Shown one piece after another: positions 322-55,207 of a stretch of 64,000 nucleotides of DNA. Every line of letters starts with the position of its first letter. Position 1 is the first letter of the stretch. The stretch spans positions 124,001 to 188,000 of the forward strand of contig NZ_JAAKGP010000006.1 in NCBI RefSeq assembly GCF_011043545.1, written 5' to 3'. The DNA is from Rhodobacter sp. SGA-6-6. GTDB taxonomy: Bacteria > Pseudomonadota > Alphaproteobacteria > Rhodobacterales > Rhodobacteraceae. A program made the position numbers and the translations under genes. The notes beneath the pieces are model-generated. The model made no database searches. It was given only the letters and a program-made list of their open reading frames with translations, and was not told the DNA's origin.

Positions 322-533
322 GTGGCGAAGGTCATCGCCTTCGCCACAGCGCACCGTTTCAACTGGACCGGCCGGGCCTCAATGGCCCGGCCAGCGCCCG
401 CCCCGCCCTCGGCGGGCGCTTCTCGCCCGCCGGGTCGGGCGCTGGCCTCTCGGGGTTCTCGTGACTGCCGTTTCTGGGTGATCCGTCGCGCACGGGCGGG
501 GGCGAGGCAGTGCCTCGCCTCTTCCCGCCCGCC
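322..533 (+). repeat. Dispersed structured repeat, family A, copy A1
   Basis: First of five related copies of a roughly 212-base intergenic element. Four hairpins can be drawn. P1 is 322-331 with 338-347 (arm GTGGCGAAGG). P2 lies at about 369-391 (GGCCGGGCC, loop tcaat, GGCCCGGCC). P3 is a long stem closing AGCGCCCG against CGGGCGCT at about 392-446, with an inner GGCGGGCG/CGCCCGCC hairpin. P4 lies at about 494-531, where GGCGAGGCA pairs with TGCCTCGCC inside GGGCGGG/CCCGCCC. The element fills most of the 376-base gap between soxG and the aminotransferase gene. Open frames across it are stop-poor because of base composition and are not genes. Confidence 0.85.
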
Positions 534-675
534 GAGGGTGACCCAGTTGGAAGTCTGGCAGGACCCGAAACCTTTCCAAACCGGCAAATTCCGGCCCATC
601 GGCCGAATTGTCGCTGGAATGTCACCCTCCGCATGTCTACACACTTCCTGAAGCATACTTTCAGGAAAGCTGAAC

Positions 676-1863
676 ATGGCGCCCGACGGTCAGATCCTCG
701 CCCCCAATGTCCACGAGGCCGAATCCATCCCCGAAGCCGCAAAGGCCGAGATCGACCGGCTGCTGGCCTCGGGCGACCTGTTCCGCTACACCGCGCCCTC
801 GGACGCGCCGGTCGCCCTGCTGGAACAGGAATTCGCCGACCTGCTGGGCGCGCGCTATGCGCTGGCGGTCTCCTCCTGTTCCGCCGCGCTGTTCCTGTCG
901 CTGAAGGCGCTGGACCTGCCGAAGGGCGCCAAGGTGCTGATCCCGGCCTTCACCTTCGCCGCCGTCCCCTCCAGCGTCGTCCATGCCGATTGCGTGCCGG
1001 TGCTGGTCGAGGTGGGCGACAACTATCGCGTCGACATGGCGGATTTCGCCGCCAAGCTGCCGGGGGCGGATGCGGTGATGATCAGCCACATGCGCGGCCA
1101 TACCAGCGACATGGACGCGATCATGGCGTTGTGCGACGCCGCCGGCATTCCGGTGATCGAGGATGCGGCGCATAGCCTCGGCACCGTCTGGGGCGGGCGC
1201 AGGATCGGCACCATCGGCAAGGTCGGCTGCTTCTCCTTCCAGTCCTACAAGCTGGTGAACGCCGGCGAGGGCGGGATCATGGTCACCGACGACTCCGAGA
1301 TCGCCGCCCGCGCCATCATCATGTCCGGCGCCTACGAGGAGAACTGGAAGAAGCATCCGGGCCTGTCGAACTCCTGCGCGCATTGGCAGAACAAGCTGCC
1401 GCTCTACAACCTGCGGATGCAGAACCTGTCCGCCGCGGTGATCCGGCCGCAGCTGCCGATGGTGGCCGGGCGGGTGGAGAAGGGCAGGGCGAACCACGAC
1501 CATGTGGCGGCACAGCTCAACGCCTGCGCGCATCTTCGGGTGCCCGATCCGCTGGGGCCGGAGGAGCGCGCGCCGGATTCGATCCAGTTCAACCTTGTGG
1601 GCGAGTGGACGGACGACGAGGCGCGGGCGTTCCAGAACGCGGCCAAGGCGCGCGGCGTCTCGGTGCAGGTCTTCGGGCTGAGCGAGGGCAATGCCCGGGC
1701 GTTCTGGAACTGGCAGTTCCTCGGGCCGCAGCCCGATCTGCCGCAGACCCGCGCCATGCTGATGCGCGCCTGCGACGTGCGGCTGCCGACCCGGCTGAAC
1801 CTGGGAGAGCTGGATTTCATCGCCGGGGCGATCCTCGGCGCGGTGGCGGATGTGAAGGGCTGA
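676..1863 (+). CDS. DegT/DnrJ/EryC1-type PLP aminotransferase
   Basis: A 395-residue fold-type I PLP enzyme of the DegT/DnrJ/EryC1/StrS family, which typically aminates keto-sugars or related carbonyl compounds in the cytoplasm. The visible motifs fit: an SSCSAAL phosphate-binding turn near residue 67, IEDAAHSLG with the ring-binding Asp163, and FSFQSYKLVNAGEGG, where Lys192 should form the Schiff base. The length is usual for the family. No sugar-biosynthesis genes accompany it, so the substrate is unknown; DegT-like proteins without such neighbours may also act in amino acid or cofactor metabolism. Translation probably starts at the ATG at 676, after a weak AGGAAAGC-like ribosome site. Repeat A1 lies upstream and a convergent hairpin (C1) follows the stop. 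Confidence 0.8.
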   Translation: MAPDGQILAPNVHEAESIPEAAKAEIDRLLASGDLFRYTAPSDAPVALLEQEFADLLGARYALAVSSCSAALFLSLKALDLPKGAKVLIPAFTFAAVPSSVVHADCVPVLVEVGDNYRVDMADFAAKLPGADAVMISHMRGHTSDMDAIMALCDAAGIPVIEDAAHSLGTVWGGRRIGTIGKVGCFSFQSYKLVNAGEGGIMVTDDSEIAARAIIMSGAYEENWKKHPGLSNSCAHWQNKLPLYNLRMQNLSAAVIRPQLPMVAGRVEKGRANHDHVAAQLNACAHLRVPDPLGPEERAPDSIQFNLVGEWTDDEARAFQNAAKARGVSVQVFGLSEGNARAFWNWQFLGPQPDLPQTRAMLMRACDVRLPTRLNLGELDFIAGAILGAVADVKG

Positions 1864-1870
1864 GGGGCGG

Positions 1871-1939
1871 CGGGCGGCTCTTCGGACACTTCGTGCCTCG
1901 TCGCAGGGCGAGGAGGAGCCGGAGGCGCGCGACGAGCCC
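1871..1939 (-). repeat. Hairpin repeat family C, copy C1
   Basis: Between two convergent genes. On the minus strand it reads GCTCGTCGCGCGCCTCCGGC and then CTCCTCCTCGCCC. The arms CTCGTCGC (1897-1904) and GCGACGAG (1929-1936) form an 8-bp stem. The same module occurs at 10051-10128, 17926-17952 and 28910-28984. Its convergent placement suggests a bidirectional terminator, but there is no T-tract. Confidence 0.55.
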
Positions 1940-2881
1940 TCAGAGAATGCGCAGGCTGTCCCCCAGGAAGGGCAGGGATGCACGCATCGGGTCCACCACC
2001 TCGGCTTGGATAAGCCCCTTCAGCCGTTGGGAAATCTGCCCCGGCACCTCGCGCAGCACGCCTGCGCGGGCCGAAAGCGACAGGGTGCGGTCCAGACCGG
2101 CGAAGGGCAACGGCAGCACGTCCACCCGGTCGCGGAAGCGGCGAGCCTGATGCAGGGCGAGCGGCGTCAGGATCGCCCAGCCGGCCCCCGCCGCCACCAT
2201 GGAAAGGATGGCGTGGTAGCTGTCCAGCTCGAACCGCGAGGCGGGTTTCAGCCCCAGTTTCGCCAGATGGGCGGCGATCTGGCGGCCCATCAGGTGGCGG
2301 GCGGTATACTGGATCAGCGGCAGGCCCTCGGGCGTGCGCCCCTTGGGGCAGACGGCCAGAAAGGGCTCGCGCAGGATCGGATGCACCTCGCGCCAGTCGC
2401 CCTCGGGCGCGCCGGTGTCGGCGGCGACCACCAGGTCCAGCGCCCGGGCCTCCAGCAGGTCCAGCAGCCGATGCGAGGGGCCGGTCTCCAGCAGGAACCG
2501 GCAGCCCTTCAATTCCGCGGCCAGCGCGGACAGCAGCCGCGGGGTCACGTCGGCCTCGAAATCCTCGATCATGCCGAGGCGCAGCGTGGTCAGCCCGGCC
2601 AGATCGGCCAGCGCCAGTTCGGCCCGCGCTTCCTCGGCGGCGTTGAGGATGGTCTGGGCGTGGCGGCGGAACATCGTGCCGGCCGGGGTGATCGCCATCG
2701 GCCTTGTGCTGCGGTCCAGCAAAGCCGCCCCGAGCGCCGATTCCAGCCCGGTCAGTTGCTGCGACACGGCGGAGGGACTGACCCCAAGCCGCCGCGCCGC
2801 GGCGGAAATGGCGCCCTCTTCCGCGGCGGCAAGGAAGACCTCGATCCCCCAGAGCGTGACGCGGCCTTCCGTCTCGGCCAT
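1940..2881 (-). CDS. LysR-family transcriptional regulator
   Basis: A 313-residue LysR-type regulator. The N-terminal winged helix-turn-helix covers about residues 8-67 (ISAAARRLGVSPSAVSQQLTGLE) and is followed by a linker helix and a periplasmic-binding-protein-like effector domain to about residue 290. The start at 2881 lies 3 bases beyond the phaR stop (2885-2887), so the two genes are almost certainly co-transcribed, phaR first. That position suggests a link to storage-polymer or carbon control, but the effector and targets are not visible. LysR regulators are usually transcribed away from a target gene; here the downstream neighbour is convergent, so there is no obvious divergent target. 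Confidence 0.85.
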   Translation of the reverse strand: MAETEGRVTLWGIEVFLAAAEEGAISAAARRLGVSPSAVSQQLTGLESALGAALLDRSTRPMAITPAGTMFRRHAQTILNAAEEARAELALADLAGLTTLRLGMIEDFEADVTPRLLSALAAELKGCRFLLETGPSHRLLDLLEARALDLVVAADTGAPEGDWREVHPILREPFLAVCPKGRTPEGLPLIQYTARHLMGRQIAAHLAKLGLKPASRFELDSYHAILSMVAAGAGWAILTPLALHQARRFRDRVDVLPLPFAGLDRTLSLSARAGVLREVPGQISQRLKGLIQAEVVDPMRASLPFLGDSLRIL

Positions 2882-2884
2882 GGA

Positions 2885-3439
2885 TCAGAGCTTCGAGAGC
2901 TTCGACTGCAATTCGGCCAGCTGGCGCTTGATCTCGGCGATGTCGTCGCCCTTGGCCGGGTTCTCGGCCTCGGGCGCGGGGCCGGAGCCGCCCCAGCCGG
3001 GCATTCCGCCCATCATCGACTTCAGGAAGGCTTCCTGCTGCTTGCGCAAAGCCTCGAACCCCGGCACGGCGGCCATGGGGTTGGGGAAATGCGCCATGTT
3101 CTCCAGCATCTTGGCCTGGCTGTTGCGCAGCATCTCGAAGCTGGAGGCCAGGAACTGCGGCATCACCGACTGCATTCCGGTGGCATAGCTGCGCACCAGA
3201 TCGGTCAGCACGTCGACGGGCAGCACGTTCTCGCCCTTCGATTCATGCTCGGCCACGATCTGCAGAAGGTATTGCCGGGTCAGGTCGTCGCCGGTCTTCA
3301 GGTCGACGATCTGCACCTCGCGGCCCTGGCGGATGAAGCCGGCAATGTCTTCCAGCGTCACGTAATCCGAGGTCTCGGTGTTGTAGAGACGCCGGCTGGC
3401 ATAGCGCTTGATCAGAAGCGGCTTGTCGGTATCGGCCAT
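2885..3439 (-). CDS. phaR: PHA synthesis repressor PhaR
   Basis: PhaR senses PHA granules and represses the phasin gene and its own regulon until polymer forms. The 184-residue product opens with the PHB/PHA accumulation regulator DNA-binding domain, with LIKRYASRRLYNTE at residues 8-21 and TLEDIAGFIRQGR after it. A central region follows with several Met and Phe residues and a PGWGG stretch, and the C-terminus is a predicted coiled coil (AEIKRQLAELQSKLSKL). I place the start at the ATG at 3439 because it directly precedes the conserved domain; an in-frame ATG at 3454 is the alternative. Two CTGC/GCAG operators lie in the phaP promoter and one lies between phaC and phaZ. The LysR gene follows after 3 bases. 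Confidence 0.92.
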   Translation of the reverse strand: MADTDKPLLIKRYASRRLYNTETSDYVTLEDIAGFIRQGREVQIVDLKTGDDLTRQYLLQIVAEHESKGENVLPVDVLTDLVRSYATGMQSVMPQFLASSFEMLRNSQAKMLENMAHFPNPMAAVPGFEALRKQQEAFLKSMMGGMPGWGGSGPAPEAENPAKGDDIAEIKRQLAELQSKLSKL

Positions 3440-3491
3440 CCGCGGCACCCCCATGGCTTTGCGCTTGCAGAGAAGCTTAAGGCGCGCGCCG

Positions 3492-3527
3492 CACAAAAAG
3501 CAAGGGCGGGCCGCAAAGGGCCCGCCC
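3492..3527 (-). terminator. Rho-independent terminator of phaP
   Basis: On the minus strand, after the phaP stop, GGGCGGGCC (3519-3527 read in reverse) pairs with GGCCCGCCC (3504-3512) around a short loop. It is followed by TTGCTTTTTGTGC, a T-rich tract at 3491-3503. It separates phaP from phaR, so phaR is likely to have its own promoter or to depend on read-through. Confidence 0.75.
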
Positions 3528-3578
3528 GAGGCGTCCGTCCGACAGGGAGGAGGCGGAGAACGCCCTGATCCCGAAGGA

Positions 3579-4028
3579 TTACTTCGCGGCAGCGGCGGCT
3601 TTCTTGGCCGCAGCGGTCACGTCCGCGGTGGCTTTCTGCACGGCGGCGGTGGCATCGGCCGAGGCTTCCTTGCCGGCGGCCAGCATCAGCTCGACGGTTT
3701 CCATCTGCACCTTCTTCGCCACTTCGGCGAAGGCGGCCAGGTTCTCGGCGGCGATCTCGGCGGCGGCCGAGGCGAAGTCGGTCACCGACTTGGTGTATTC
3801 GGTCGGCTCGGCCTTGGCCTTGGCGACGTCGCTCATGCGGGCGATCGAGTCCTTGGCCCATTTGGCGCTGATCTCGGTCGATTTCTCGGCGGCTTCCAGC
3901 GCGACCTTGGCAAGCTTCTCGCCGAAGGCGGCCTGGGTCTTGAACGCGTTCTGGAACGCCGAGGCGTCAACGGGGAACTGGGCCATCATGTCCTGCACGA
4001 CTTTGGTGAAATCCGTGGTCTTGGTCAT
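3579..4028 (-). CDS. phaP: Phasin (PHA granule-associated protein)
   Basis: A 149-residue phasin that coats PHA granules in the cytoplasm and controls their size and number. The protein is almost entirely alpha-helical and Ala/Lys/Glu-rich, with the phasin-family core between residues 10 and 110 (FTKVVQDMMAQF, then AFGEKLAKVALEAAEKSTE, then AAENLAAFAEVAKK). The C-terminal tail is a Lys/Ala-rich repeat (TAAAKKAAAAAK). The start at 4028 is supported by the strong AAAGGAG ribosome site 6 bases upstream; the open frame runs further upstream but crosses the promoter. The promoter at 4087-4137 has two PhaR boxes, so expression should rise when PhaR is titrated by polymer. A T-tailed terminator follows. 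Confidence 0.92.
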   Translation of the reverse strand: MTKTTDFTKVVQDMMAQFPVDASAFQNAFKTQAAFGEKLAKVALEAAEKSTEISAKWAKDSIARMSDVAKAKAEPTEYTKSVTDFASAAAEIAAENLAAFAEVAKKVQMETVELMLAAGKEASADATAAVQKATADVTAAAKKAAAAAK

Positions 4029-4086
4029 TTCATCTCTCCTTTGTCCGGGTGTCTGCCGGCTGTCCGGGGCCCGTTTCATGGGCAAG

Positions 4087-4137
4087 GATATACATGCTGC
4101 AGTGCAGAAATTCAAGACAGTTTCTGCAATGCAGCAT
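4087..4137 (-). promoter_or_regulatory. phaP promoter with two PhaR operators
   Basis: Read on the minus strand there is a -35 TTGAAT (4110-4115), a 17-base spacer and a -10 TATATC (4087-4092). One CTGC-N3-GCAG box (CTGCACTGCAG) sits inside the spacer, and a second (CTGCATTGCAG, about 4124-4134) lies upstream of the -35. PhaR of Paracoccus and Rhodobacter is known to bind such CTGC/GCAG sequences. Repression by promoter occlusion is the natural inference. Confidence 0.75.
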
Positions 4138-4367
4138 TACCGTGGGCGCATGACAGGGACATGACGCTCGCCCTGTGGGAGAGTGACGCTACGGAAACCC
4201 GGAAGCGGTTGAGAATGCGGGATTTACCATGGTGCGGCGGGCGGGGAATCCTTGCCCGGAAGGCATCCGGTCTCCGTCTGCGGCGAAATGGAAGCTGCCG
4301 GCGCCATGTGGCGACCTCCCCCTTTCCTGGCCGGGAAAGCGAATCGCTGCGCTGCGGCGGATTTGTC

Positions 4368-4580
4368 TGGCGAAGGCCATCGCCTTCGCCACGGAGCAAC
4401 GCTTCCCCTTGTCCGGCCGGGCCTCAAAGGCCCGGCCAGCGCCCGCCCCGCCCTCGGCGGGCGCTTCTCGCTCGGCCTCGGTCGGGCGCTGGCCTCTCGG
4501 GGTCTCGTGCCACGACCGTCTCTTGGTGCACCCGCCGCGCACGGGCGGGGCGAGGCAGTGCCTCGCCTGCTCCCGCCCGG
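4368..4580 (+). repeat. Dispersed structured repeat, family A, copy A2
   Basis: Second copy, in the 608-base gap between the phaP start and the phaC stop. It shows the same order of hairpins as A1: P1 (TGGCGAAGG/CCTTCGCCA), the linker GCAACGCTTCCCCTTG, P2 (GGCCGGGCC, loop tcaaa, GGCCCGGCC), P3 and P4. The apical part of P3 is altered (CTCGGCCTC instead of CCCGCCGGG). It lies antisense to phaC and phaP. I see nothing gene-like in 4138-4367. Confidence 0.85.
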
Positions 4581-4636
4581 GGAGGCCGGGGAGCGTCCTG
4601 CACGGATGTCGATCCGGCTGGAACAAAGGTCAGGCG

Positions 4637-6439
4637 TCAGGCCGCCGGAGTCTCCGGCCCGGCCACCACATAGGTGCCGGGGGCGGGGGCCAGCACCTCG
4701 GCCCCGTCGCCGGGCTGGCGCGCCTTCACCATCGGGCCGGAGCGGTCCGCCAGCCATTCCCCCCAGCGGGGCCACCAGCTGCCCGGGGTCTTCCCGGCCC
4801 CGGCCAGCCAGTCCTCGGGGGCGCCGGCCACCGGGGCGGAGCTGGTGTAATGGCCGTATTTGCCCTTGGACGGCGGGTTGATGATCCCGGCGATATGGCC
4901 CGACTCGGACAGGATGAAGGTCTTGTCCTTCGATCCCATCTGCTTCACCCCGTTGAACGAGCCCTTCCAATGGGCGATGTGGTCGGTCTCGCAGGCCACC
5001 GCGCAGACCGGCAGCCTGATGTCCGACAGGCTGACCGGCTCGCCGAAGACCGGGAACTGGCCCCGCGCGAAGCCGTCCTGCTGGCAAAGCCCGCGCAGGT
5101 ATTCCACCGCCATCTTCGCCGGCAGGTTGGTGGCGTCGCCGTTCCAGAACAGGAGGTCGAAGGCGGGCGGCGCCTCGCCCATCATGTAGCTTTTGATCGC
5201 GGGGGTGTAGATCAGGTCGTTCGAGCGCAGGAAGGAGAAGGTGCGGGACATGAAGAAGGACGACAGGATGCCGTCCTGCGCCGTCTGCCGCTCGATCCCG
5301 TCGACGAAATCGTCGGCCAGAAAGACGCCCACCTCGCCCGGGTCGGAGAAATCGGTCAGGGTGGTGAAGAAGGTGGCGCAGTTCACCGATCTGTCGCCGG
5401 CCTTCTGCAGATGCGCCAGCGTCAGGCCCAGGGTGGTGCCGGCGATGCAATAGCCGACGGCGTTGATCTGCTTCTCGCCGGTGATCCGCCGCACCTCGGC
5501 CATGGCGCGCAGGTAGCCGTCGCGGATGTAGTCGTCCATGCCGACACCGGCATAACTGGGATCGGGGTTGACCCAGCTGACCACGAACAGCGTGAAGCCC
5601 TGGTCCACGATCCACTTGATCAGCGAATTCTGCGGCTTCAGGTCCATGATGTAGAACTTGTTGATCCAGGGCGGGAAGATCAGCAGCGGGGTCTTGTGGA
5701 CCTTCTCCGTCGTCGGCGCATACTGGATCAGCTCCAGCATCCGGTTGCGGTAGACCACCGAACCGGGCGTGGTGGCGATGTTCTGGCCGACGTGGAAGGC
5801 CTCCTTGTCGGCCAGTGTCACCAGGAGGTCGCCCTGGTTGGCCTCGATGTCGCGGACCAGGTTCTCCAGCCCCTGCACCAGGCTTTCGCCATCGGTCGCC
5901 ACCGCCTTTTCCAGCGCGTCGGGGTTGGTGCCGAGGAAGTTGGTGGGGGCGAACATGTCGACGATCTGGCGGGTGAAATATTCCACCCGGCGGCGGTCCT
6001 CGGCCGGCAGCGTCTCCATGTCGCCGACGGCGGTGGAGATCGCCTCGGCGTTCAGAAGATATTGCTGCTTGAGGAAATTGAAGAAGGGATGGCTGTCCCA
6101 GAGCGGGTTCTGGAAGCGGCGGTCCTTCGGGCCGGGGTCGGGCGGGGCCTTGAACTCGCCCTTGGCCAGCACCTGCTGCGCCTCGACGTAATGCTTCAGC
6201 GTCTTGCCCCAATAGCCGATCTGATGCTCCAGCACCTTGGCGGGATTCTGCATCATCTCGGCCAGATAGGCGGCGGCGGCCTTCATGTAGACATCCGACG
6301 AGGGGCCGGCCAGCGCCGGATCGGCCGGGCGGCGCTGCGCCAAGGCGGAAGCGAGGCGTTTCGACAACTCTTCGACGCGGGCGAGGTTGGCGTTGAGACG
6401 GTCCTGCCTTGCACCCGGATCGTCGGATTCAGTTGCCAT
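4637..6439 (-). CDS. phaC: Class I polyhydroxyalkanoate synthase
   Basis: A 600-residue class I PHA synthase that polymerises hydroxyacyl-CoA, mainly (R)-3-hydroxybutyryl-CoA, on the granule surface. The N-terminal domain covers about residues 1-230 and the alpha/beta-hydrolase catalytic domain follows. The lipase-like box GYCIAG places the catalytic Cys at 331. The conserved Asp is at 486 (ACETDHIAHW) and His at 515 (SESGHIAG). The length matches class I enzymes, and no phaE or phaR-subunit gene is needed. The ATG at 6439 follows GGGGGAACGATTAAC. A CTGC/GCAG PhaR box lies in the 99-base divergent gap shared with phaZ. Copy A2 sits directly beyond the stop. Confidence 0.95.
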   Translation of the reverse strand: MATESDDPGARQDRLNANLARVEELSKRLASALAQRRPADPALAGPSSDVYMKAAAAYLAEMMQNPAKVLEHQIGYWGKTLKHYVEAQQVLAKGEFKAPPDPGPKDRRFQNPLWDSHPFFNFLKQQYLLNAEAISTAVGDMETLPAEDRRRVEYFTRQIVDMFAPTNFLGTNPDALEKAVATDGESLVQGLENLVRDIEANQGDLLVTLADKEAFHVGQNIATTPGSVVYRNRMLELIQYAPTTEKVHKTPLLIFPPWINKFYIMDLKPQNSLIKWIVDQGFTLFVVSWVNPDPSYAGVGMDDYIRDGYLRAMAEVRRITGEKQINAVGYCIAGTTLGLTLAHLQKAGDRSVNCATFFTTLTDFSDPGEVGVFLADDFVDGIERQTAQDGILSSFFMSRTFSFLRSNDLIYTPAIKSYMMGEAPPAFDLLFWNGDATNLPAKMAVEYLRGLCQQDGFARGQFPVFGEPVSLSDIRLPVCAVACETDHIAHWKGSFNGVKQMGSKDKTFILSESGHIAGIINPPSKGKYGHYTSSAPVAGAPEDWLAGAGKTPGSWWPRWGEWLADRSGPMVKARQPGDGAEVLAPAPGTYVVAGPETPAA

Positions 6440-6460
6440 GTTAATCGTTCCCCCCTATTT

Positions 6461-6475
6461 TGCTGCCATGCAGCA
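6461..6475. promoter_or_regulatory. PhaR-type operator between phaC and phaZ
   Basis: The palindrome TGCTGCCATGCAGCA contains the CTGC-N3-GCAG core seen twice upstream of phaP. It lies in the divergent intergenic region, 22 bases from the phaC start and 64 from the phaZ start, so it could control either gene or both. Binding by PhaR is inferred from motif identity. Confidence 0.65.
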
Positions 6476-6538
6476 TTCGTCGTCGGCCATTGGGGGGGCC
6501 GCGGCCAGGGTGCCGGTACCCGCCCGAAGGAGACGCCT

Positions 6539-7819: not shown

Positions 7820-7869
7820 CGGGTTTTCGCCGAAAACCCGTGATTTCACGATTTTTCGGCGAAAAATCG
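7820..7869. terminator. Double hairpin between convergent genes (family D, D1)
   Basis: Two adjacent perfect hairpins: CGGGTTTTC/GAAAACCCG at 7820-7840 and CGATTTTTCG/CGAAAAATCG at 7849-7869. The first starts one base after the phaZ stop and the second ends six bases from the stop of the convergent hydrolase. Each has a T-run in its left arm and an A-run in its right arm, so it can work as a terminator on both strands. Confidence 0.65.
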
Positions 7870-7874
7870 GGCCC

Positions 7875-9325: not shown

Positions 9326-9352
9326 CAGGGGAGTCCTTCTGGCGCCGCGACC

Positions 9353-10015: not shown

Positions 10016-10050
10016 GGGGGCAGGCTAGCAGGGCGGAGCAGGGCTGTCAC

Positions 10051-12582: not shown

Positions 12583-12600
12583 GGGGCGTGGGGGGGGTCC

Positions 12601-40911: not shown

Positions 40912-41110
40912 GGATATTTGGGGCAGGTGAATGGAGAAGAGGTCTTCTTCAAATTCACCTGCTCCAAATATCCTCGGGGGTATGCCAGCGGTTTCGCCAT
41001 CGGTTCGAGAAACCGATGGCATGGGGGGCAGAATGCCCCCATCAGCCGACAGCAGCCGCAGGAGACTCCGCCGGCCGCAACGATAAAGGCTTGCGGCGGC
41101 AGCCGCGCCT
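40912..41110 (+). repeat. Variable-arm hairpin repeat, family B, copy B2
   Basis: The long hairpin pairs GGATATTTGG (40912-40921) with CCAAATATCC (40964-40973) and GCAGGTGAAT (40923-40932) with ATTCACCTGC (40953-40962). GCCATCGGTT/AACCGATGGC follows at 40996-41020 and GGGGGCA/TGCCCCC at 41024-41040. The conserved tail to 41110 contains GACAGCAGCCGC, AACGATAAAGGC and GGCGGCAGCCGCGCC. The 456-base gap separates the divergent secG and DMT genes and holds no gene. Confidence 0.8.
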
Positions 41111-41174
41111 TTGCTTCGCCGGCGATGTCGCTTTCGGGATGGCGGGGCGGCGGCCGGGCGGCTAGCCATGGGGC

Positions 41175-45281: not shown

Positions 45282-45297
45282 GGCTGGGAGAGGAGGA

Positions 45298-45555: not shown

Positions 45556-45624
45556 GGGCTCCTCCGGTCCGCTCCTCCTTCGCCTCCGGCGCGTCGTCGC
45601 GACGCGCGTCGGGGGGAGCAGGGG

Positions 45625-46917: not shown

Positions 46918-47067
46918 GCTGAGGTCCTTCCCCGGTCCAGGAATTGCGCCAGCCCCATAGCGGATGCCGGCGCGGGGGGGAAGGGGGGCCGGGGAAAATG
47001 GAGGGGCGGGGAGGGCGCTTCCCCGGGCGCCGGTCTCCCGGCCCCGCCCGGCGGATGCCTCCGGCGG

Positions 47068-47225
47068 GGATATTTAAGTCCAGAAAGAGGAGAAAGGCCT
47101 GCTCCTCTTTCTGGACTTAAATATCCTCAGGGGGTTTGGGGGCAGAATGCCCCCATCGGACGACAGCAGCCGCAAGAGATTCCGCCAGCCACCACGAAAA
47201 GGAATGCGGCGGCAGCCGCGCCTTC
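47068..47225 (+). repeat. Variable-arm hairpin repeat, family B, copy B3
   Basis: A perfect 25-bp hairpin: left arm 47068-47092 (GGATATTTAAG, TCCAGAAAGAGGAG), 9-base loop, right arm 47102-47126. GGGGGCA/TGCCCCC follows at 47138-47154, then the conserved tail (GACAGCAGCCGCAAGAGATT ... GGCGGCAGCCGCGCCTTCGG). It ends 11 bases before the sdaA stop and may serve as its terminator on the minus strand. The 319-base gap holds no gene. Confidence 0.85.
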
Positions 47226-47236
47226 GGATCGCGGGA

Positions 47237-48616: not shown

Positions 48617-48629
48617 CTGGGCCTGGCTT

Positions 48630-49298
48630 TCAGCGGGCGGGGCGGGTGAAGAGGGTCGGGCCGAGGTCCTCGGCCGCTGCCACCCGGGCCGCGGCCGCGG
48701 TGGTTTCGCAGGCGGCGAGGGTGGCGTGCAGGACGGGATAGTCGGCGGCGCGGATCAGGCCGGGATGGCCGTCGGGCAATTGCCCCAGCCAGCGCATCAG
48801 CGTGCCGATGTAGAGGCCGAGGAGCGAGGGCCGGTCGGCCGGGAACAGCGCCGGCGCGGCTTTCGCCCCGGTCTCCAGCGCGTCCAGCACGGTTTTCGCC
48901 CGGGCGGCGGCCAGCGGGACCAGCGCCTCCGAGGCCGCGGGCCCGGCCACGCGGTCGGAGTAGTAGATCTCCATCACCGGCGGATGCAGGTTTGAGGTGG
49001 CGAAGAACAGCCATTTCAGGAAGGCGCCGCGGTCCCCGGTTCCGGGCGCCGGGGCGAAGCGGCCGGGCGCATGGGTGTCGGCCAGCCACAGCAGGATGGC
49101 GGCGGTCTCGACCAGCGGTCCCTCCGGGGTTTCCAGCACCGGGATCTTCCCCAGCGGATGCAGCACCCGGTAGCCGGGCGAGGCCAGTTCGCCGCCCTCG
49201 CGGTCGACCCGACGGGCGGTGTAGGGCAGGGCCAGCTCTTCCAGCAGGATGCGGACGGGCGTGGCCGCGGTGTCGGGGGTATGGTGGAGGACGAACAT
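48630..49298 (-). CDS. Glutathione S-transferase family protein
   Basis: A 222-residue GST. The thioredoxin-like N-terminal domain (residues 1-78) contains PVRILLEELALPYTARRVDR and the gamma-glutamyl-binding segment GKIPVLETPEGPLVETAAIL with the conserved cis-Pro and an ETAAI turn. The helical C-terminal domain ends near residue 205. Thr, Ser or Cys near the N-terminus (HHTPDTAATP) could take the role of the activating residue. The substrate is unknown. It is followed by sdaA after 13 bases. The divergent gap to rpiA holds repeat A3. Confidence 0.85.
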   Translation of the reverse strand: MFVLHHTPDTAATPVRILLEELALPYTARRVDREGGELASPGYRVLHPLGKIPVLETPEGPLVETAAILLWLADTHAPGRFAPAPGTGDRGAFLKWLFFATSNLHPPVMEIYYSDRVAGPAASEALVPLAAARAKTVLDALETGAKAAPALFPADRPSLLGLYIGTLMRWLGQLPDGHPGLIRAADYPVLHATLAACETTAAAARVAAAEDLGPTLFTRPAR

Positions 49299-49420
49299 CT
49301 CCGGGTGTCTCCTGTGCGCCGGCAGAATATGGGGCGGCGCGGGGGCGCTGAACAGGCGGAAACCGACATAAGGGATGCGGGGATTGACATGGGGGGTGGC
49401 AGCGCGGTGGCGAGGCCTCC

Positions 49421-49633
49421 TTGGCGAAGGCGCGCGCCTTCGCCACGGAGCAACGCTTCCCCTTGTCGCGGCCGGGCCTTTAAGGCCCGGCCAGCGCCCG
49501 CCCCGCCCTCGGCGGGCGCTTCTCGCCCGCCGGGTCGGGCGCTGGCCTCTCCGGGTTTAGCGCTGCCACCGTCTCCGGTTGACATGTCGCGCACGGGCGG
49601 GGGCGAGGCAATGCCTCGCTTTCTCCCGCCCGG
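49421..49633 (+). repeat. Dispersed structured repeat, family A, copy A3
   Basis: Third copy, in the 447-base divergent gap between the GST gene and rpiA. P1 here is GCGAAGGCGC/GCGCCTTCGC. P2 is GGCCGGGCC with loop tttaa and GGCCCGGCC. P3 and P4 are as in A1, except that the P4 loop closes AATG instead of AGTG. The rest of the gap (49299-49420 and 49634-49745) shows no gene. Confidence 0.85.
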
Positions 49634-49745
49634 CCGGGCGGTGGATCGGAACCGCCGGCCCGCGACTGTTTCCCCGATTGCCTCTCGCCCCAGCCGGGGC
49701 TTTGCGCTAATCGGAGGGCGGACGCCAAGGACGGAAGGAAGACCG

Positions 49746-50531
49746 ATGCCCGCCGATCTGAACCCCATCGACAAGGCCAAGTTCATCGCGGCGAAGCGTG
49801 CGGTGGAATTCGTCGAGGACGGGATGAAGCTGGGCCTCGGCACCGGCTCCACCGCCGCCTGGATGGTGCGCTGCCTGGCCGAGCGCATCCGGGAAGAGGG
49901 GCTGCGGGTGGTCGGCGTGCCGACCTCCAGCCGGACGGCGGAGCTGGCGGCCAGCCTCGGTATCCGGCTTTCCACGCTGGACGACGTGAAATGGCTGGAC
50001 CTGACCATCGATGGCGCCGACGAGTTCGACCCCAACCTGAACCTGATCAAGGGCGGCGGCGCCGCGCTGTTGCAGGAGAAGATCGTGGCGACCGCCTCGG
50101 ATCAGATGATCGTGATCGCCGATGCGGCCAAGGAGGTGGTCCAGCTGGGTGCCTTCCCGCTGCCGGTGGAGGTGATCCCCTTCGGCTGGCAGACCACCAA
50201 GGCGCTGGTCGAGGAGACGCTGGTGTCGATGGATGTGCTCGGCCGCGACGTGACCCTGCGGATGAACGGCGACAAGCCGCTGGTGACCGACGAGGCCAAC
50301 TACATCCTCGACCTGCACCTGAACCGGATCGGCAACGCGCGCCAACTGGCGCTGGTGCTGAACCAGATTCCGGGCGTGGTGGAGAACGGGCTTTTCATCG
50401 ACATCTGCGACATCGTGGTGATCGGCCATGCCGACGGCCGGGCCTCGGTGCGCGACATCAACACCGGCAGGGTCGAGGACGACCGGGTGGACTTCGCGCC
50501 GAGCGACAACATCTTCGCCGATCTGGAGTGA
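49746..50531 (+). CDS. rpiA: Ribose-5-phosphate isomerase A
   Basis: A 261-residue isomerase interconverting ribose-5-phosphate and ribulose-5-phosphate in the pentose phosphate pathway. Phosphate-loop motifs KLGLGTGSTAAWMV (about residues 28-41) and GVPTSSRT are present. The catalytic region is LTIDGADEFDPNLNLIKGGG followed by ALLQEKIVA. The C-terminal substrate-proximal segment is VVENGLFIDICDIVVIG. The ATG at 49746 is preceded by GGAAGGAAGACC. Glutathione reductase follows in the same orientation after 344 bases; the pentose phosphate pathway supplies its NADPH, a functional but not necessarily transcriptional link. Confidence 0.95.
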   Translation: MPADLNPIDKAKFIAAKRAVEFVEDGMKLGLGTGSTAAWMVRCLAERIREEGLRVVGVPTSSRTAELAASLGIRLSTLDDVKWLDLTIDGADEFDPNLNLIKGGGAALLQEKIVATASDQMIVIADAAKEVVQLGAFPLPVEVIPFGWQTTKALVEETLVSMDVLGRDVTLRMNGDKPLVTDEANYILDLHLNRIGNARQLALVLNQIPGVVENGLFIDICDIVVIGHADGRASVRDINTGRVEDDRVDFAPSDNIFADLE

Positions 50532-50582
50532 AGTCGGGGCGGGGAAGGCCGCTTCGGACGGAGCTGTCATCGCCGCAACGGA

Positions 50583-50764
50583 GGCCGGCGCCCGACCGCG
50601 GGTGGGCGCTGCCAACGGTGCGTGGGCAGCGCTTCATGGGGCGGCTTCTCCCCCGGATGGAGCGGAGAACCGACGGCGCAGAAGCGCCCGCCCGGGGGGC
50701 GGTCGGGCGCTGGCCGGGGGCGCGTTCCGCGCCTGTTGACCCGGCCGGGACTTCGGTCCGGCGG
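50583..50764. repeat. Structured element related to family A between rpiA and gor
   Basis: GGCCGGCGCCCGACC (50583-50597) pairs over 15 bases (one G-T) with GGTCGGGCGCTGGCC (50701-50715), the same closing stem as P3 of family A. CGCTGCC/GGCAGCG (about 50607-50631) forms one inner hairpin. CAGAAGCGCCCGCC (50679-50692) is P3 sequence in reverse orientation. CCGGGAC-ttcg-GTCCGG (about 50745-50761) is a UUCG-type hairpin. P1, P2 and P4 are not recognisable. The 344-base gap shows no gene. Confidence 0.55.
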
Positions 50765-50875
50765 TGTGCGCAGGTGCTCCTTCCCGATGGCGGCCATGAG
50801 CCTCCTGTTCCCCCCTCTGGCCTTTCCCGGGCCTCCATGGGATACCCTCGGGATAATCTTTCAGGGGGTTCACCA

Positions 50876-52228
50876 ATGTCCTTCGACGTTGATCTTTTCG
50901 TCATCGGCGGCGGCTCGGGCGGGGTGCGGGCGGCGCGGATCGCTGCCGCCGAGGGCGGCGCCAAGGTGGCGCTGGCCGAGGAAAGCCGGATGGGCGGCAC
51001 CTGCGTCATCCGCGGTTGCGTGCCGAAGAAGCTGATGGTGAACGCCAGCGTGCTGGGCGCGGCGGTCGCGGATGCCAAGGCCTATGGCTGGCAGGTGCAG
51101 GCCGGGGGCTTCGACTGGGGCCATTTCCGCAAGGCGCTGGAGGCGGAGCTGGACCGGCTGGAGAATGCCTACCGCAACACCCTCACCGGGGCGGGCGTGA
51201 CCATCCACGATGCCCGCGCGGTGGTGAAGGATGCCCATGCGGTGCGGCTGGCCGATGGAACCCGGATCACCGCCAGGCATATCCTGATCGCCACCGGCGG
51301 CCGGCCCTTCGTGCCCGACATCCCGGGGGCCGACCTCGCCGTCACCTCGAACGCTATGTTCCATCTCGACGCCCTGCCCAAGCGGGCGCTGGTGGTGGGC
51401 GGCGGCTATATCGCATCGGAATTCGCCTGCATCCTCAACGGGCTGGGGGTGGAGGTTACGCAGTATTACCGCGGCCCGCAGATCCTGCGCGGCTTCGATG
51501 CCGAGGCGCGGGAGCATGTGGCGGCGGCGATGCAGGCGCAAGGCATCGCCATCCATTGCAACGCCGACGTGGCCCGGCTGGAGAAGGTCGCGGGCGGCAT
51601 CCGCGCCCATGCCACCGACGGCACGGCCGGCGACTTCGATCTGGTGCTCTACGCTACCGGGCGGGTGCCGAACAGCGCCGGGCTGGGGCTGGAGGCATTG
51701 GGCGTCCGCATCGGCGCGCGCGGGCAGGTGGAGGTGGACGGCTACAGCCAGACCTCGGTGCCCTCGATCTATGCCGTCGGCGATGTGACCGACCGGGTGA
51801 ACCTGACCCCGGTGGCGATCCGCGAGGGCCATGCCTTCGCCGATACCGTCTTCCTCGGCCGCCCGACCAGGGCAGACCACGAGTTGGTGGCCAGCGCCGT
51901 CTTCACCCAGCCGGAACTGGGCACGGTTGGGTTGACGGAAGAGGAGGCGCGGGCGGCCGGGCCGGTGGAGATCTATGCCGCGACCTTCCGGCCGATGAAG
52001 TCGCTCTTCGCCGGGCGGCAGGACCGGATGCTGATGAAGCTGGTGGTCGCCGCCGACAGCCGCCGGGTGCTGGGCTGCCACATCGTCGGCGAGGGCGCGG
52101 GAGAGCTGATCCAGCTGGCGGCGGTGGCGATCCGGATGGGGGCGACGAAAGAGGATTTCGACCGCACTGTCGCCGTGCATCCCACCGTGGCCGAGGAACT
52201 GGTGACCATGCGAAAGCCGGTGCGGTAG
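50876..52228 (+). CDS. gor: Glutathione reductase
   Basis: A 450-residue FAD/NADPH-dependent disulfide oxidoreductase that keeps glutathione reduced. The FAD motif GGGSGGVRAARIA is at residues 11-23, the redox-active disulfide GGTCVIRGCVPKK has Cys43 and Cys48, and the NADPH motif VVGGGYIASEFA lies near residue 178. AVHPTVAEE, about 17 residues from the C-terminus, gives the active-site His-Glu pair of the partner subunit. VNLTPVAIREG and the absence of an extra N-terminal metal domain favour glutathione reductase over mercuric or dihydrolipoamide enzymes. The ATG at 50876 follows AGGGGG. GGCGGGGT/ACCCCGCC after the stop (52261-52278) may terminate it. Confidence 0.92.
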   Translation: MSFDVDLFVIGGGSGGVRAARIAAAEGGAKVALAEESRMGGTCVIRGCVPKKLMVNASVLGAAVADAKAYGWQVQAGGFDWGHFRKALEAELDRLENAYRNTLTGAGVTIHDARAVVKDAHAVRLADGTRITARHILIATGGRPFVPDIPGADLAVTSNAMFHLDALPKRALVVGGGYIASEFACILNGLGVEVTQYYRGPQILRGFDAEAREHVAAAMQAQGIAIHCNADVARLEKVAGGIRAHATDGTAGDFDLVLYATGRVPNSAGLGLEALGVRIGARGQVEVDGYSQTSVPSIYAVGDVTDRVNLTPVAIREGHAFADTVFLGRPTRADHELVASAVFTQPELGTVGLTEEEARAAGPVEIYAATFRPMKSLFAGRQDRMLMKLVVAADSRRVLGCHIVGEGAGELIQLAAVAIRMGATKEDFDRTVAVHPTVAEELVTMRKPVR

Positions 52229-52260
52229 GGGGAAAGGCGACGGCGGGGATGGTCCCGTAG

Positions 52261-52278
52261 GGCGGGGTTCACCCCGCC
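52261..52278 (+). terminator. Hairpin after gor
   Basis: GGCGGGGT-tc-ACCCCGCC is a perfect 8-bp hairpin, 32 bases past the gor stop and 14 bases before repeat A4. There is no T-tract, so intrinsic termination is uncertain. Confidence 0.4.
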
Positions 52279-52292
52279 GCTCCGCCGATGCA

Positions 52293-52508
52293 TTGGCGAA
52301 GGCCATCGCCTTCGCCACGACGCAACGGTTCCCCTTGGCCGGCCGGGTGCTTCACAAGCACCCGGCCAGCGCCCGCCCCGCCCCCGGCGGGCGCTACTCG
52401 CCCGCCGGGTCGGGCGCTGGCCTATGTGGTCTCGGGCTGACAGGTCTACAGGGGGAACCCGCCCCCTCGGGCGGGGGCGAGGCAGCGCCTCGCCTTTTCC
52501 CGCCCGCC
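52293..52508 (+). repeat. Dispersed structured repeat, family A, copy A4
   Basis: Fourth copy, in the 454-base gap between gor and hflK. P2 here is GGCCGGGTGC with loop ttcacaa region and GCACCCGGCC: three positions differ from A1 on both arms and pairing is kept. The region between P3 and P4 also departs from the other copies (GGGGGAACCCGCCCCC). P1, P3 and the P4 core are conserved. The remainder of the gap up to hflK shows no gene. Confidence 0.85.
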
Positions 52509-52682
52509 GCCCCCGCGCCCGTCCCTCGGTTGCGGCCCCCGCCGATCCGGCCTAGGGTAGCTGCGGTGCGGCAAAGCGGCCCGGACCGCCCGCGGGGGCG
52601 GCTTCCGGGGCGGTTTGCGCTTGAATTCGCCGTGCGGATGCACAGGTTAGACGGAACGTAGGAACAGAGAGGAACAGGCCAC

Positions 52683-53852
52683 ATGGCAGGAGGTCCCTGG
52701 GGGGGCGGCGGAGGCGGCGGGCGCGGGCCCGACGACGAGGACCGCCGTGACGACGACGGGCGGCGCGGCGGCGGGCGGCGGCCCGGCGAAGGCCCGCAGA
52801 TCCCCGAGATCGACGAGATCATGCGCAAGGGGCAGGAACAGCTGCGGGTGCTGATGGGCGGCCGCGGCCGCGGCGGCCAGAACGGCGGCGGCGGCCCGCG
52901 CGGGCCCTCCACCGGACCGATCTTCACCAGACAGGGCCTTCTCCTGGGCGCGCTGGCGCTGGTCGCCGGCTGGGCCTTCATGTCCTTCTACTCGGTCCGG
53001 CCCGAGGAACGCTCGGTCGAGCTGACGCTCGGCCGCGCCTCGGGCATCGGCGAGTCGGGTCTGAACTTCGCCCCCTGGCCGATCGTGACCTACGAGAAGG
53101 TGCAGGTCACCGGCGAGCGCACCACCGACATCGGCAGCGCCGACGGCAACACCGGCGCGCTGATGCTGACGCGCGACCAGAACATCGTCGACATCGGCTT
53201 CCAGGTGCAGTGGAACGTCTCGGACCCCGAGGCCTATCTCTTCAACCTCGCCGACCCCGAGGAGACCATCCGCGCCGTCAGCGAAAGCGCCATGCGCGAC
53301 ATCATCGCCCGGTCGGAACTGTCGCCGATCCTCAACCGCGAGCGCGGCGCCATCGCGGCGGACCTGCGCACCGCGGTGCAGGCGACGCTGGACCAGTATA
53401 ACGCCGGCATCCAGGTGATCCGGGTCAACCTGCGGCGGGCGCAGCCCCCCGCGGACGTGGCCGCCGCCTTCCGCGCGGTGCAGGACGCCCAGCAGGAACG
53501 CGACCGGCTGGAGAAGGAGGCCGACGGCTACGCCAACCGCGTCACCGCCGGCGCCCGCGGCGAGGCCGCGCGTCTGGTCGAGGAGGCCGAGGCCTACCGC
53601 GCCCAGGCGATCAACAGCGCCGAGGGCGAGGCCGCGCGCTTCAATTCGGTCTATGCCGAATATGTCAAGGCGCCCGAGATCACCCGCAAGCGGCTGTATC
53701 TGGAGGCGATGGAAACCGTGCTTGGCGGAGTGGACAAGGTGATCCTCGATGGCGTGACCGGCGAGGGGGGCGTGCTGCCCTACCTGCCGCTTGACCGGCT
53801 GGGCGGCCGCGCTCCGGCGCAGGCTCCGGCAGCGACCGGGGGGGCCAACTGA
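52683..53852 (+). CDS. hflK: FtsH protease modulator HflK
   Basis: A 389-residue SPFH/prohibitin-type protein that with HflC forms the periplasm-facing cage around the membrane protease FtsH. A very Gly/Arg/Asp-rich cytoplasmic N-terminus (about residues 1-80) precedes one transmembrane helix (QGLLLGALALVAGWAFMSFY). The SPFH domain starts near residue 105 (VRPEERSVELTLG), and a charged coiled-coil region follows (ERDRLEKEADGYANRVTAGA). The tail is Pro/Ala-rich. hflC follows with a 1-base overlap (TGATG). The ATG at 52683 is preceded by AGAGGAACAGG. Repeat A4 is upstream. Confidence 0.95.
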   Translation: MAGGPWGGGGGGGRGPDDEDRRDDDGRRGGGRRPGEGPQIPEIDEIMRKGQEQLRVLMGGRGRGGQNGGGGPRGPSTGPIFTRQGLLLGALALVAGWAFMSFYSVRPEERSVELTLGRASGIGESGLNFAPWPIVTYEKVQVTGERTTDIGSADGNTGALMLTRDQNIVDIGFQVQWNVSDPEAYLFNLADPEETIRAVSESAMRDIIARSELSPILNRERGAIAADLRTAVQATLDQYNAGIQVIRVNLRRAQPPADVAAAFRAVQDAQQERDRLEKEADGYANRVTAGARGEAARLVEEAEAYRAQAINSAEGEAARFNSVYAEYVKAPEITRKRLYLEAMETVLGGVDKVILDGVTGEGGVLPYLPLDRLGGRAPAQAPAATGGAN

Positions 53853-54763
53853 TGCGTCCGATCTACATCCTTCCCGTCCTCTTCATCCTGCTGGTGCTGT
53901 TCCTGTCCTCGGTCTTCATCGTCGACGAAAGGAAGAAGGCGCTGGTCCTGCAGTTCGGCGAGATCATGCAGGAGAAGGAAACCCCCGGCCTCGGCTGGAA
54001 GATCCCCTTCATCCAGGAGGTGGTCTATTACGAGGACCGCATCCTCGGCCTGCAGACCGCGCCGATCGAGGTGACGCTTCTGGGCGAGCGCCGGCTGGTC
54101 GTCGACGCCTTCGCCCGCTGGCGGATCACCGACCTGAAGGCCTTCCGCCAGGCCACCGGCGCCGGCGGCGAGGAACGGGCGCAGGTGCTGCTGGGCAACA
54201 TCCTGCAACAGGCAATCCCCGAGGTGCTGGGCAAGACCACCCAGGACCGGGTGCTGAGCCAGGACCGCACCGGGCTGATGAACGACATCCGCGACATCGC
54301 CCGCCGCGAGGCCGAGGCGCTTGGCGTGACCGTCATCGACGTGCGGCTGACCCGCACCGACCTGCCCGAGCAGAACCTGAACGCCACCTACGCCCGGATG
54401 CGGGCCGAGCGCGAGCGCGAGGCGGCGGACGAGGTGGCGCGCGGCGGCGAGGCGGCGCAGAGGGTGCGCGCGGCGGCCGACCGGACCGTGGTCGAGGAGA
54501 CCTCGAAGGCGCGGCGGACGGCCGAGACCATCCGCGGCGAGGCCGATGCCGAGCGGAACCGCATCCTGGCCGAGGCCTATGGCCAGGACCCCGAGTTCTT
54601 CGCCTTCATGCGCTCGATGGATGCCTACCGCAAGGCGCTGCGGGGCGAGAATTCCACCATCGTCATGCAGCCCGACAGCGAGTTCTTCGACTATCTGAAC
54701 AGCGAGGCCGGGGCAGCCGGGGCAGCTCCCGCGGCCCCGACAGCCGCGCCCGCGGCGCCGTGA
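53852..54763 (+). CDS. hflC: FtsH protease modulator HflC
   Basis: A 303-residue SPFH protein, partner of HflK. One N-terminal transmembrane helix (YILPVLFILLVLFLSSVFIV) is followed directly by the SPFH domain (VDERKKALVLQFGEIMQEKE). Long helices come after (RMRAEREREAADEVARGGEA, AETIRGEADAERNRILAEAY), with the family's conserved YRKAL near residue 265. The C-terminus is an Ala/Pro tail. The start shares one base with the hflK stop, and the stop overlaps the GTG of the DUF2065 gene, so three genes are translated in series. Confidence 0.95.
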   Translation: MRPIYILPVLFILLVLFLSSVFIVDERKKALVLQFGEIMQEKETPGLGWKIPFIQEVVYYEDRILGLQTAPIEVTLLGERRLVVDAFARWRITDLKAFRQATGAGGEERAQVLLGNILQQAIPEVLGKTTQDRVLSQDRTGLMNDIRDIARREAEALGVTVIDVRLTRTDLPEQNLNATYARMRAEREREAADEVARGGEAAQRVRAAADRTVVEETSKARRTAETIRGEADAERNRILAEAYGQDPEFFAFMRSMDAYRKALRGENSTIVMQPDSEFFDYLNSEAGAAGAAPAAPTAAPAAP

Positions 54764-54954
54764 CCTGGGTGCTGCTGGCCCTCGGGCTGGTGCTTGCGGT
54801 GGAGGGGCTGGCGCTTGCGCTGGCCCCTTCGCGCATGGAGGAGGCGCTGCGGCTGCTTGCGGAGATGGGACCGGAGCGGCGGCGGATGCTGGGCCTGGCC
54901 AGTCTGGCGCTCGGCGTGGCGCTGTGCTGGCTGGCGCGGGGGCTGGCGGGGTAG
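54760..54954 (+). CDS. DUF2065 (YjeT-like) small membrane protein
   Basis: A 64-residue protein starting at a GTG that overlaps the hflC stop (GTGA). Its reading is TWVLLALGLVLAVEGLALAL, then APSRMEEALRLLAEMGPERR and RMLGLASLALGVALCWLARG: two hydrophobic helices around a short amphipathic, charged loop, the DUF2065 pattern. In E. coli the homologue YjeT also follows hflC, so position and sequence agree. Function is unknown; a link to the HflKC-FtsH complex is suggested only by this conserved neighbourhood. The gene is easily missed because it is short and has a GTG start. Confidence 0.8.
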   Translation: MTWVLLALGLVLAVEGLALALAPSRMEEALRLLAEMGPERRRMLGLASLALGVALCWLARGLAG

Positions 54955-54993
54955 GGGGATGCGCTTCCGCGGTCCCAGCCCTCCAAAGTTACC

Positions 54994-55207
54994 ATGGCGA
55001 AGGCCACCGCCTTCGCCACAGCGCAACGCTTCCCCCTGTCCCGGCCGGGACCATAAGTCCCGGCCAGCGCCCGCCCGCCCCTCGGCGGGCGCTTCTCGCC
55101 CGCCCGGTCGGGCGCTGGCCTCTCGGGGTTCAGAGTGACTGCCGTCTCCGGGTGCAACCGCCGCGCACGGGCGGGGGCGAGGCAGTGCCTCGCCTTTTCC
55201 CGCCCGG
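54994..55207 (+). repeat. Dispersed structured repeat, family A, copy A5
   Basis: Fifth copy, in the 443-base gap between the DUF2065 gene and degP. P2 is GGCCGGGAC, loop cataa, GTCCCGGCC: it differs from A1 at the base pairs next to the loop on both arms, pairing kept. P3 also differs slightly (GCCCGCCCCTC and CGCCCGGTC). Beyond it, AATGCC/GGCATT (55260-55277) forms a small separate hairpin in the degP leader. Confidence 0.85.

What the first reader, a model, noticed from the sequence alone, without database searches (positions are those of the whole stretch)
322..55207. Five-copy structured repeat family A, about 215 bp, with four conserved hairpins
Copies at 322-533, 4368-4580, 49421-49633, 52293-52508 and 54994-55207 share the same order: P1 (GCGAAGG/CCTTCGC), linker GCAACGCTTCCCCTTG, P2, P3 (AGCGCCCG/CGGGCGCT with an inner GGCGGGCG/CGCCCGCC) and P4 (GGCGAGGCA/TGCCTCGCC inside GGGCGGG/CCCGCCC). 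All are intergenic and none encodes protein. I know of no named element with this architecture. Size and structure exceed REP/BIME units. It may be a non-autonomous repeat, a family of small RNAs or a DNA-structure site.
Basis: partly seen in the sequence, partly recalled or inferred. Interest (0 to 1): 0.78.

Follow-up and report, generated by a model that had tools for sequence, protein, structure and literature searches.

The report
Replication-oriented, freely shuffled palindromic intergenic repeat
Some 225 to 265 copies of a 215-letter, many-hairpin DNA repeat sit just after genes in this Rhodobacteraceae bacterium, mostly pointing the way DNA is probably copied, with nearly unchanging stems and with variable parts mixed among copies as if the copies recombined freely.

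Summary
All five copies are real. They belong to a dispersed family of roughly 225-265 copies in a genome near Pseudogemmobacter/Xinfangfangia. A 1.66 Mb sample holds 132 strong copies, 131 essentially full length. Rfam has no match. The P2-P3 core occurs in 53 of 248 Rhodobacteraceae genomes, own included.

(2) Copies lie 3' of genes and avoid divergent promoters. (3) 107 of 132 follow the G-rich (presumed leading) strand, also where flanking genes give no direction (49 of 58). (4) Stems hardly vary, yet loop and linker alleles are at linkage equilibrium beyond about 12 b, apart from one covarying pair. Copies must therefore exchange short tracts.

No Y1 (REP/IS200) transposase was found in this genome or 12 congeners, and no target duplication.

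Best reading: a large REP-like palindromic DNA element, exposed as single strand at forks, maintained as folding DNA and shuffled by ectopic short-tract gene conversion. The spreading enzyme is unknown; an RNA role is less likely, not excluded. New variant of a known kind.

The parts
322..533 (+). copy 1: P1 323-346, P2 370-392, P3 389-447 (A 389-402, A' 411-420, A''' 436-447), P4 493-531
4368..4580 (+). copy 2: P1 4368-4391, P2 4415-4437, P3 4434-4494 (A 4434-4447, A' 4456-4465, A''' 4483-4494), P4 4542-4579
49421..49633 (+). copy 3: P1 49422-49445, P2 49470-49492, P3 49489-49547 (A 49489-49502, A' 49511-49520, A''' 49536-49547), P4 49594-49632
52293..52508 (+). copy 4: P1 52294-52317, P2 52341-52367, P3 52364-52422 (A 52364-52377, A' 52386-52395, A''' 52411-52422), P4 52468-52506
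54994..55207 (+). copy 5: P1 54995-55018, P2 55043-55065, P3 55062-55120 (A 55062-55075, A' 55084-55093, A''' 55109-55120), P4 55168-55206

Best explanation
A family of large (about 215 bp) palindromic intergenic DNA repeats, REP-like in habit but not REPs. SHOWN here: many dispersed copies; placement at gene 3' ends; co-orientation with the G-rich strand; near-invariant stems; two mutually exclusive covarying pairings of the core; linkage equilibrium among copies; absence from the one region compared in congeners; no Y1 transposase found. INFERRED: the G-rich strand is the leading strand, so the P1-to-P4 strand is the lagging-strand template, is exposed as single strand at passing forks and folds there. 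New copies are laid down in that orientation by a single-strand-dependent route, with an enzyme not identified, lost, or acting in trans. Copies recombine with one another: lesions at the hairpins during replication are repaired from other copies, short patches are exchanged, and unlike flanks confine the exchange to the element. This scrambles loop and linker alleles, while selection or templated palindrome correction keeps the stems folding. The A/A'/A''' arrangement lets the core switch between two adjacent hairpins (P2 + A:A') and one long hairpin (A:A''').
For: Strand polarity: 107 of 132 copies follow the G-rich strand; 11 of 12 contigs by majority; rank correlation 0.81, p 0.0013 over 12 contigs; 20 of 20,000 random contig sign assignments do as well; 49 of 58 at convergent or divergent sites, and 22 of 34 copies between lagging-strand genes oppose those genes. 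Shuffling: r2 falls from 0.31 (1-2 b) to the 1/n floor beyond 12 b; 0 of 28 segment pairs at p<0.01 and 128 haplotypes in 131 copies; same in the 66 copies without a 77 b exact match to another copy; trees without recombination give mean r2 0.54, minimum 0.23. Stems: 1.7% of cells differ from consensus v 22% of unpaired ones. Both alternative helices covary, and G.T cells are few (1 of 346 in the far helix). Lagging-strand transposition is documented for IS200/IS605 (PMC6006769, abstract and passages). Evolution of REPs by gene conversion was proposed in 1988 (title seen in a reference list only).
Against: No enzyme or autonomous partner was found: PF01797 0 matches here and in 12 congeners, PF07282 0 of 26 genomes. 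No target duplication or precise empty site was found, so mobility itself is inferred. The bottom strand, not the top, folds slightly better (first 60 of 131 copies). GC skew is a proxy; C44 disagrees (6+/7-), and an earlier test on less sequence gave rho 0.26, p 0.41. Some linkage remains: 6 of 91 segment pairs have z>2.5, three of them inside P3. The second genome tried, G283, had only 10 matches in 400 kb, too few to test polarity or shuffling. Exchange could have taken place before insertion rather than after.
Confidence: 0.45

Rival explanations
1. An RNA element: a bistable 3'-UTR or small RNA whose core switches between near and far pairings, protecting mRNA ends or regulating termination.
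For: Placement downstream of genes (median 32.5 b from gene ends, 119 b from starts); covarying helices; near and far folds within about 5 kcal/mol as RNA; 48 of 74 copies in tandem sites are sense to the genes.
Against: Strand choice follows GC skew more than transcription (22 of 34 copies between lagging-strand genes are antisense). G.T is not in excess over A.C in stems (19 v 46 cells in this genome; 1 v 8 in the far helix across genera). P4 T-run not conserved. No Rfam family.
Confidence: 0.17
2. A chromosome-polarity or recombination signal kept by the host (like Chi or KOPS in logic): copies are under selection in the leading-strand orientation.
For: Polarity and stem constraint in most copies.
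Against: The hfl region sampled in 80 loci of relatives shows copies in one only (L154), and 12 congeners have 0 to 5 core matches, so no general need. Known signals of that kind are short (recalled). Few copies near the parS sites (1 in 120 kb).
Confidence: 0.13
3. An ordinary dead or dying miniature transposon (MITE) family; polarity and constraint are leftovers.
For: Discrete full-length unit; absence at the compared sites in congeners; high copy number in separate genera (own, G241, G283 at the scoring cap).
Against: No target duplication. Stems are spared about 13-fold relative to unpaired positions. No near-identical pairs (maximum identity 0.940 among 88 copies). Tree-like spread cannot give linkage equilibrium.
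Confidence: 0.15
4. Assembly artefact: short reads have mixed up the alleles of repeats.
For: Draft genome in 67 contigs; sequencing method unknown.
Against: Median longest exact match between two copies is 35 b; only 7 of 131 copies share 100 b or more with another; linkage is equally absent in the 66 copies whose longest match is under 77 b.
Confidence: 0.05

Closest known systems
REP / REPIN / BIME repeats with RAYT (PMC3116915 and PMC6006769 passages; PMC3733652 abstract start and one passage)
   Same: Hundreds of intergenic palindromic copies, near gene ends; single-strand DNA thinking; gene conversion proposed for REPs in 1988 (title in a reference list only).
   Different: About 215 b with four hairpins against 20-40 b units; no Y1 transposase found; one-way replication polarity; two-state core; linkage equilibrium measured.
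IS200/IS605 single-strand transposons (PMC6006769 abstract and passages)
   Same: Hairpin-bearing DNA and a bias to the lagging-strand template; no target duplication (recalled).
   Different: No TnpA or TnpB found here; no recognisable left and right ends around a gene.
Rhizobial RIME/ABC mosaic elements, Yersinia YPAL, ERIC (recalled; search listings only)
   Same: 100-200 b intergenic elements built of several palindromes (recalled).
   Different: Not compared by sequence here; replication polarity and free shuffling are not recalled for them.
Structured RNA families of Rfam
   Same: Covarying helices.
   Different: No match at gathering.

Membership tests
REP/RAYT system | Y1 transposase (PF01797) in the genome | tested here: not met
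   0 matches in own genome and 12 congeners; 6 of 40 genomes and 5 of 14 control genomes do ring. A past or foreign enzyme is not excluded.
REP/RAYT system | 20-40 b palindrome with a GTAG- or CGTC-type tag at one end | tested here: not met
   Unit of about 215 b; the upstream consensus in 125 copies is CGG.TTCCT before TGGCGAAGG, no such tag.
MITE of a cut-and-paste transposon | target site duplication | tested here: not met
   No offset gives a clear excess in 88 copies; best 12 observed v 5.4 expected for 3-mers among many offsets tried.
MITE of a cut-and-paste transposon | terminal inverted repeats spanning the unit | tested here: not met
   Inverted repeats found in copy 2 are internal; none joins the two ends.
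IS200/IS605-like element | orientation biased to one replication strand | tested here: met
   107 of 132, by GC-skew proxy.
IS200/IS605-like element | TnpA (Y1) or TnpB present | tested here: not met
Rfam family | score above gathering | tested here: not met
Intrinsic terminator | stem followed by a T-run | tested here: not met
   P4 tail TTTT in 17 of 131 copies; other genera have TGATCC or similar.
RIME/ABC, YPAL, ERIC | sequence homology to the named repeat | not tested
   No reference sequences were fetched.

The most novel reading that the evidence does not exclude
A dispersed bacterial repeat family that behaves as a freely recombining population. Some 250 copies on one chromosome exchange patches of about a dozen bases so often that loop alleles are at linkage equilibrium, while replication exposes them as folded single strands in one orientation and their hairpins seed the exchanges. 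A non-coding element would thus have its own 'sex' through fork-linked gene conversion.
Probability: 0.42. Interest if true: 0.82.

Novelty: new variant of a known kind. Interest (0 to 1): 0.62.

Why it matters
Whether REP-like repeats spread by transposition, are kept by selection or are homogenised by gene conversion is an old question. This family gives a statistical handle on it: discrete alleles, nearly fixed stems, many unlinked copies, a measurable decay of linkage, and strand polarity. It also offers a two-state, covarying nucleic-acid structure spread over Rhodobacteraceae that has no match in Rfam.

Tried and rejected
Partner enzymes: Y1 transposase absent; TnpB domain 0 of 26 genomes; reverse transcriptase one match in the own genome (C13) and none in copy-bearing G011, so no clear partner. 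Loss of SbcCD as the reason palindromes are tolerated: SbcD_C is not found here, but also not in 24 of 26 genomes in all, so it does not single this genome out. Target duplication: no clear excess. Copies close together sharing alleles: no (42 neighbour pairs 0.199 v 0.218 for random pairs). dnaA as polarity switch: the copies seen on either side of it on C1 point the same way; parS sites lie on C67. G.T v A.C asymmetry was first read as a sign of bottom-strand folding; much of the excess lies in A' and A''', where double use of arm A can explain it, so no strand is claimed. Polarity and shuffling could not be tested in G283 for lack of copies. Literature: nine searches, seen as listings with abstract starts, showed no description of this repeat; four papers were searched for terms, one without any occurrence (PMC2267715). 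The library is open-access only.
Full report
WHAT WAS CLAIMED AND WHAT IS THERE. The five copies exist where stated and align over their whole length with 82% mean column identity. blastn of copy 2 on the own genome scored 13 candidates, its cap, and all 13 match at 88-100% over nearly the full unit. In 1,663,023 b (window plus 80 stretches) a profile of 17 copies finds 132 matches of 50 bits or more. One is a 5' part (C1:212086); 131 could be aligned as full units. Ten weaker matches were set aside: four overlap strong copies, six are partial or degenerate, two of these lacking P2-P3. Scaling the 474 genome-wide places of a 15-mer by the 2.106 places per element in the sample gives 225 copies; four contiguous runs of 760 kb with 47 copies give 265. 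Both are rough, since stretches were not drawn at random.

ORGANISM. The window's second Band_7 protein (HflC by recall of the hflKC order; Pfam) is 92% identical to that of Xinfangfangia sp. CPCC 101601 and 82% to Pseudogemmobacter humi. The genome therefore lies in or near that genus of Rhodobacteraceae.

ANATOMY. Order in the P1-to-P4 sense: 10 bp hairpin P1; a variable linker; hairpin P2; core P3; a second variable linker of about 46 b; and P4, a 9 bp palindrome inside an 8 bp clamp. The 3' arm of P2 overlaps the 5' arm of P3. Arm A (GGCCAGCGCCCGCC) can pair with A' nearby or A''' further on, not both; pairing with A''' also opens the base of P2. The consensus core folds at -56.5 (near) and -61.3 (far) kcal/mol as RNA, -35.7 and -37.7 as DNA. 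In 29 cores from several genera the far helix has 96.5% of 346 cells paired, and 6 of 12 pairs are changed on both sides (30 cells; shuffled mean 8.6; 0 of 500 as high). P2 plus near has 13 such cells against 5.3 (0 of 500); P2 carries most of them. The alignment was made without structure, but its copies were found with a model of the far helix, which leans towards that helix. In L172, L154 and L176 the arms A, A' and A''' change together. Within this genome a covarying pair at aligned positions 85 and 113 (r2 0.86) would extend the far helix.

CONSERVATION. Stem cells are consensus in 7105 of 7206 (arm A counted twice, 131 copies). Of 13,100 stem cells 1.7% differ from consensus, gaps included, against 22% of 15,065 unpaired cells. 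120 of 131 copies have at most 3 changes in 100 stem positions. Pairwise identity of 88 copies averages 0.837 with maximum 0.940, so no very recent burst is seen.

PLACE. 1 of 132 overlaps a gene call, although 89% of the sample is called coding (genes called by my own codon-usage script, not a standard caller). 47 lie between convergent, 74 between tandem and 11 between divergent genes; all adjacent pairs number 226, 1071 and 231. Median distance is 32.5 b to gene ends and 119 b to gene starts. The hfl region was compared in 80 loci: only L154 (Pseudorhodobacter sp. PARRP1) holds copies at E<=0.01. The six nearest loci (L076-L081) have none, where the window has three. These sites were gained in this lineage or lost in the others.

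REPLICATION POLARITY. On most contigs sampled copies point one way (C1 28 of 31, C23 20 of 24, C6 8 of 8, C65 11 of 14; C44 is mixed, 6+/7-). The direction matches the sign of GC skew for 107 of 132 copies and for 11 of 12 contigs by majority; C33 rests on 3 v 2. The copy-wise p of 3e-13 treats copies as independent. Contig-wise, the rank correlation is 0.81 (p 0.0013), and 20 of 20,000 random sign assignments reach 107. On less sequence the correlation was 0.26 (p 0.41); the additional sequence changed the skew sign of C65 and C6. Gene direction does not explain it: at convergent and divergent sites 49 of 58 agree, and between two genes on the other strand 22 of 34 copies oppose the genes. 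That the G-rich strand is the leading strand is recalled general knowledge; origin and terminus were not mapped. If so, the P1-to-P4 strand is the lagging-strand template. The 120 kb with the two parS-like sites holds one strong copy.

SHUFFLING. Variable positions fall into recurring alleles (P1 loop CATC 51, GCGT 44 of 131). Among 52 sites with a second allele in at least 20 copies, mean r2 is 0.31 at 1-2 b, 0.20 at 3-5 b, 0.10 at 6-11 b and 0.009-0.021 in the bins beyond 12 b, the floor being about 0.010. Of 28 pairs among eight segments the lowest p is 0.042, and 131 copies carry 128 haplotypes. All four combinations occur at least three times in 1123 of 1156 site pairs more than 12 b apart, against 119 of 170 nearer pairs. 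Against this: among 91 pairs of 14 segments six have z above 2.5, three inside P3 (up to 22, the covarying pair), one between neighbours (P1 loop and the start of linker 1, 3.1) and two others (3.0, 2.7). Constant-size trees without recombination give mean r2 0.54, minimum 0.23 in 200 simulations. Assembly error is a worry in a draft: using the 66 copies with no exact match of 77 b or more to another copy, r2 beyond 12 b is 0.020-0.027 against a floor of 0.020. Copying from few masters should leave linkage; independent mutation should not give the same four-base loop about 50 times. Exchange between copies, before or after insertion, is the simplest remaining account.

SPREAD. The core model matches 13 of 60 genomes, own included. 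In a draw of 248 genomes of the family it matches 53, own included, at E<=1e-5. Only 17 candidates per genome were scored there; own, G241 and G283 reached that cap, G257 had 16 and G231 13. The complete P1-to-P4 unit is seen, with other stem sequences, in G283, Pseudorhodobacter sp. PARRP1, G010 and G024. Most other-genus copies viewed show only P2-P3. High copy number arose more than once or was often lost.

HOW IT MOST LIKELY WORKS. Orientation with the fork, palindromes, gene-end placement and lack of target duplication point to single-stranded DNA at forks, as described for IS200/IS605 (PMC6006769, abstract and passages). No Y1 transposase was found (the control genomes did ring), so membership is not claimed. 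Constraint on stems plus shuffling of the rest points to exchange confined to the element; repair of fork lesions between copies is my inference. Counter-evidence: the bottom strand folds slightly better (60 of 131 copies), no autonomous partner and no precise empty site were found, and G283 could not test polarity or shuffling (10 matches in 400 kb).

VERDICT. The repeat family is real, large, unnamed in Rfam and not seen in the open-access papers searched (nine searches, listings). It is a new variant of interspersed palindromic repeats. The linkage equilibrium is the surprising part.

Noticed in passing
window 41024-41111, 47138-47225, 61618-61705: A second repeat (GGGGGCAGAATGCCCCC...), 19 matches in the 1.66 Mb sample; 15 of 19 also follow the G-rich strand.
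   Followed up: partly
window 47057-47115, 61536-61594: A near-palindromic repeat (GGCGGGGATATTTGAGTCCAGAAAGAGGA...) directly before two of the copies of the second repeat; 53 profile matches in the sample, both strands counted.
   Followed up: partly
window 52257 (+) and 17421 (-): REP-like hairpin GTAGGGCGGGGTTCACCCCGCC, 67 places with up to 3 mismatches in the sample, in a genome where no Y1 transposase was found.
   Followed up: no
14 b before P1 in 125 copies of the own genome: A weaker motif CGG.TTCCT, with G-rich and then C-rich stretches before it, like the tail of a terminator: target preference or a variable part of the element. G283 copies have GGACAAT-like bases there.
   Followed up: no
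G000 C67:1-120000: One strong copy in 120 kb around the parS-like sites, against 46 in the other 640 kb of the four runs counted.
   Followed up: no
G283 C10:132044-132335 (L249): A 5' half copy on + abuts a full copy on -, an inverted pair with no base between.
   Followed up: no
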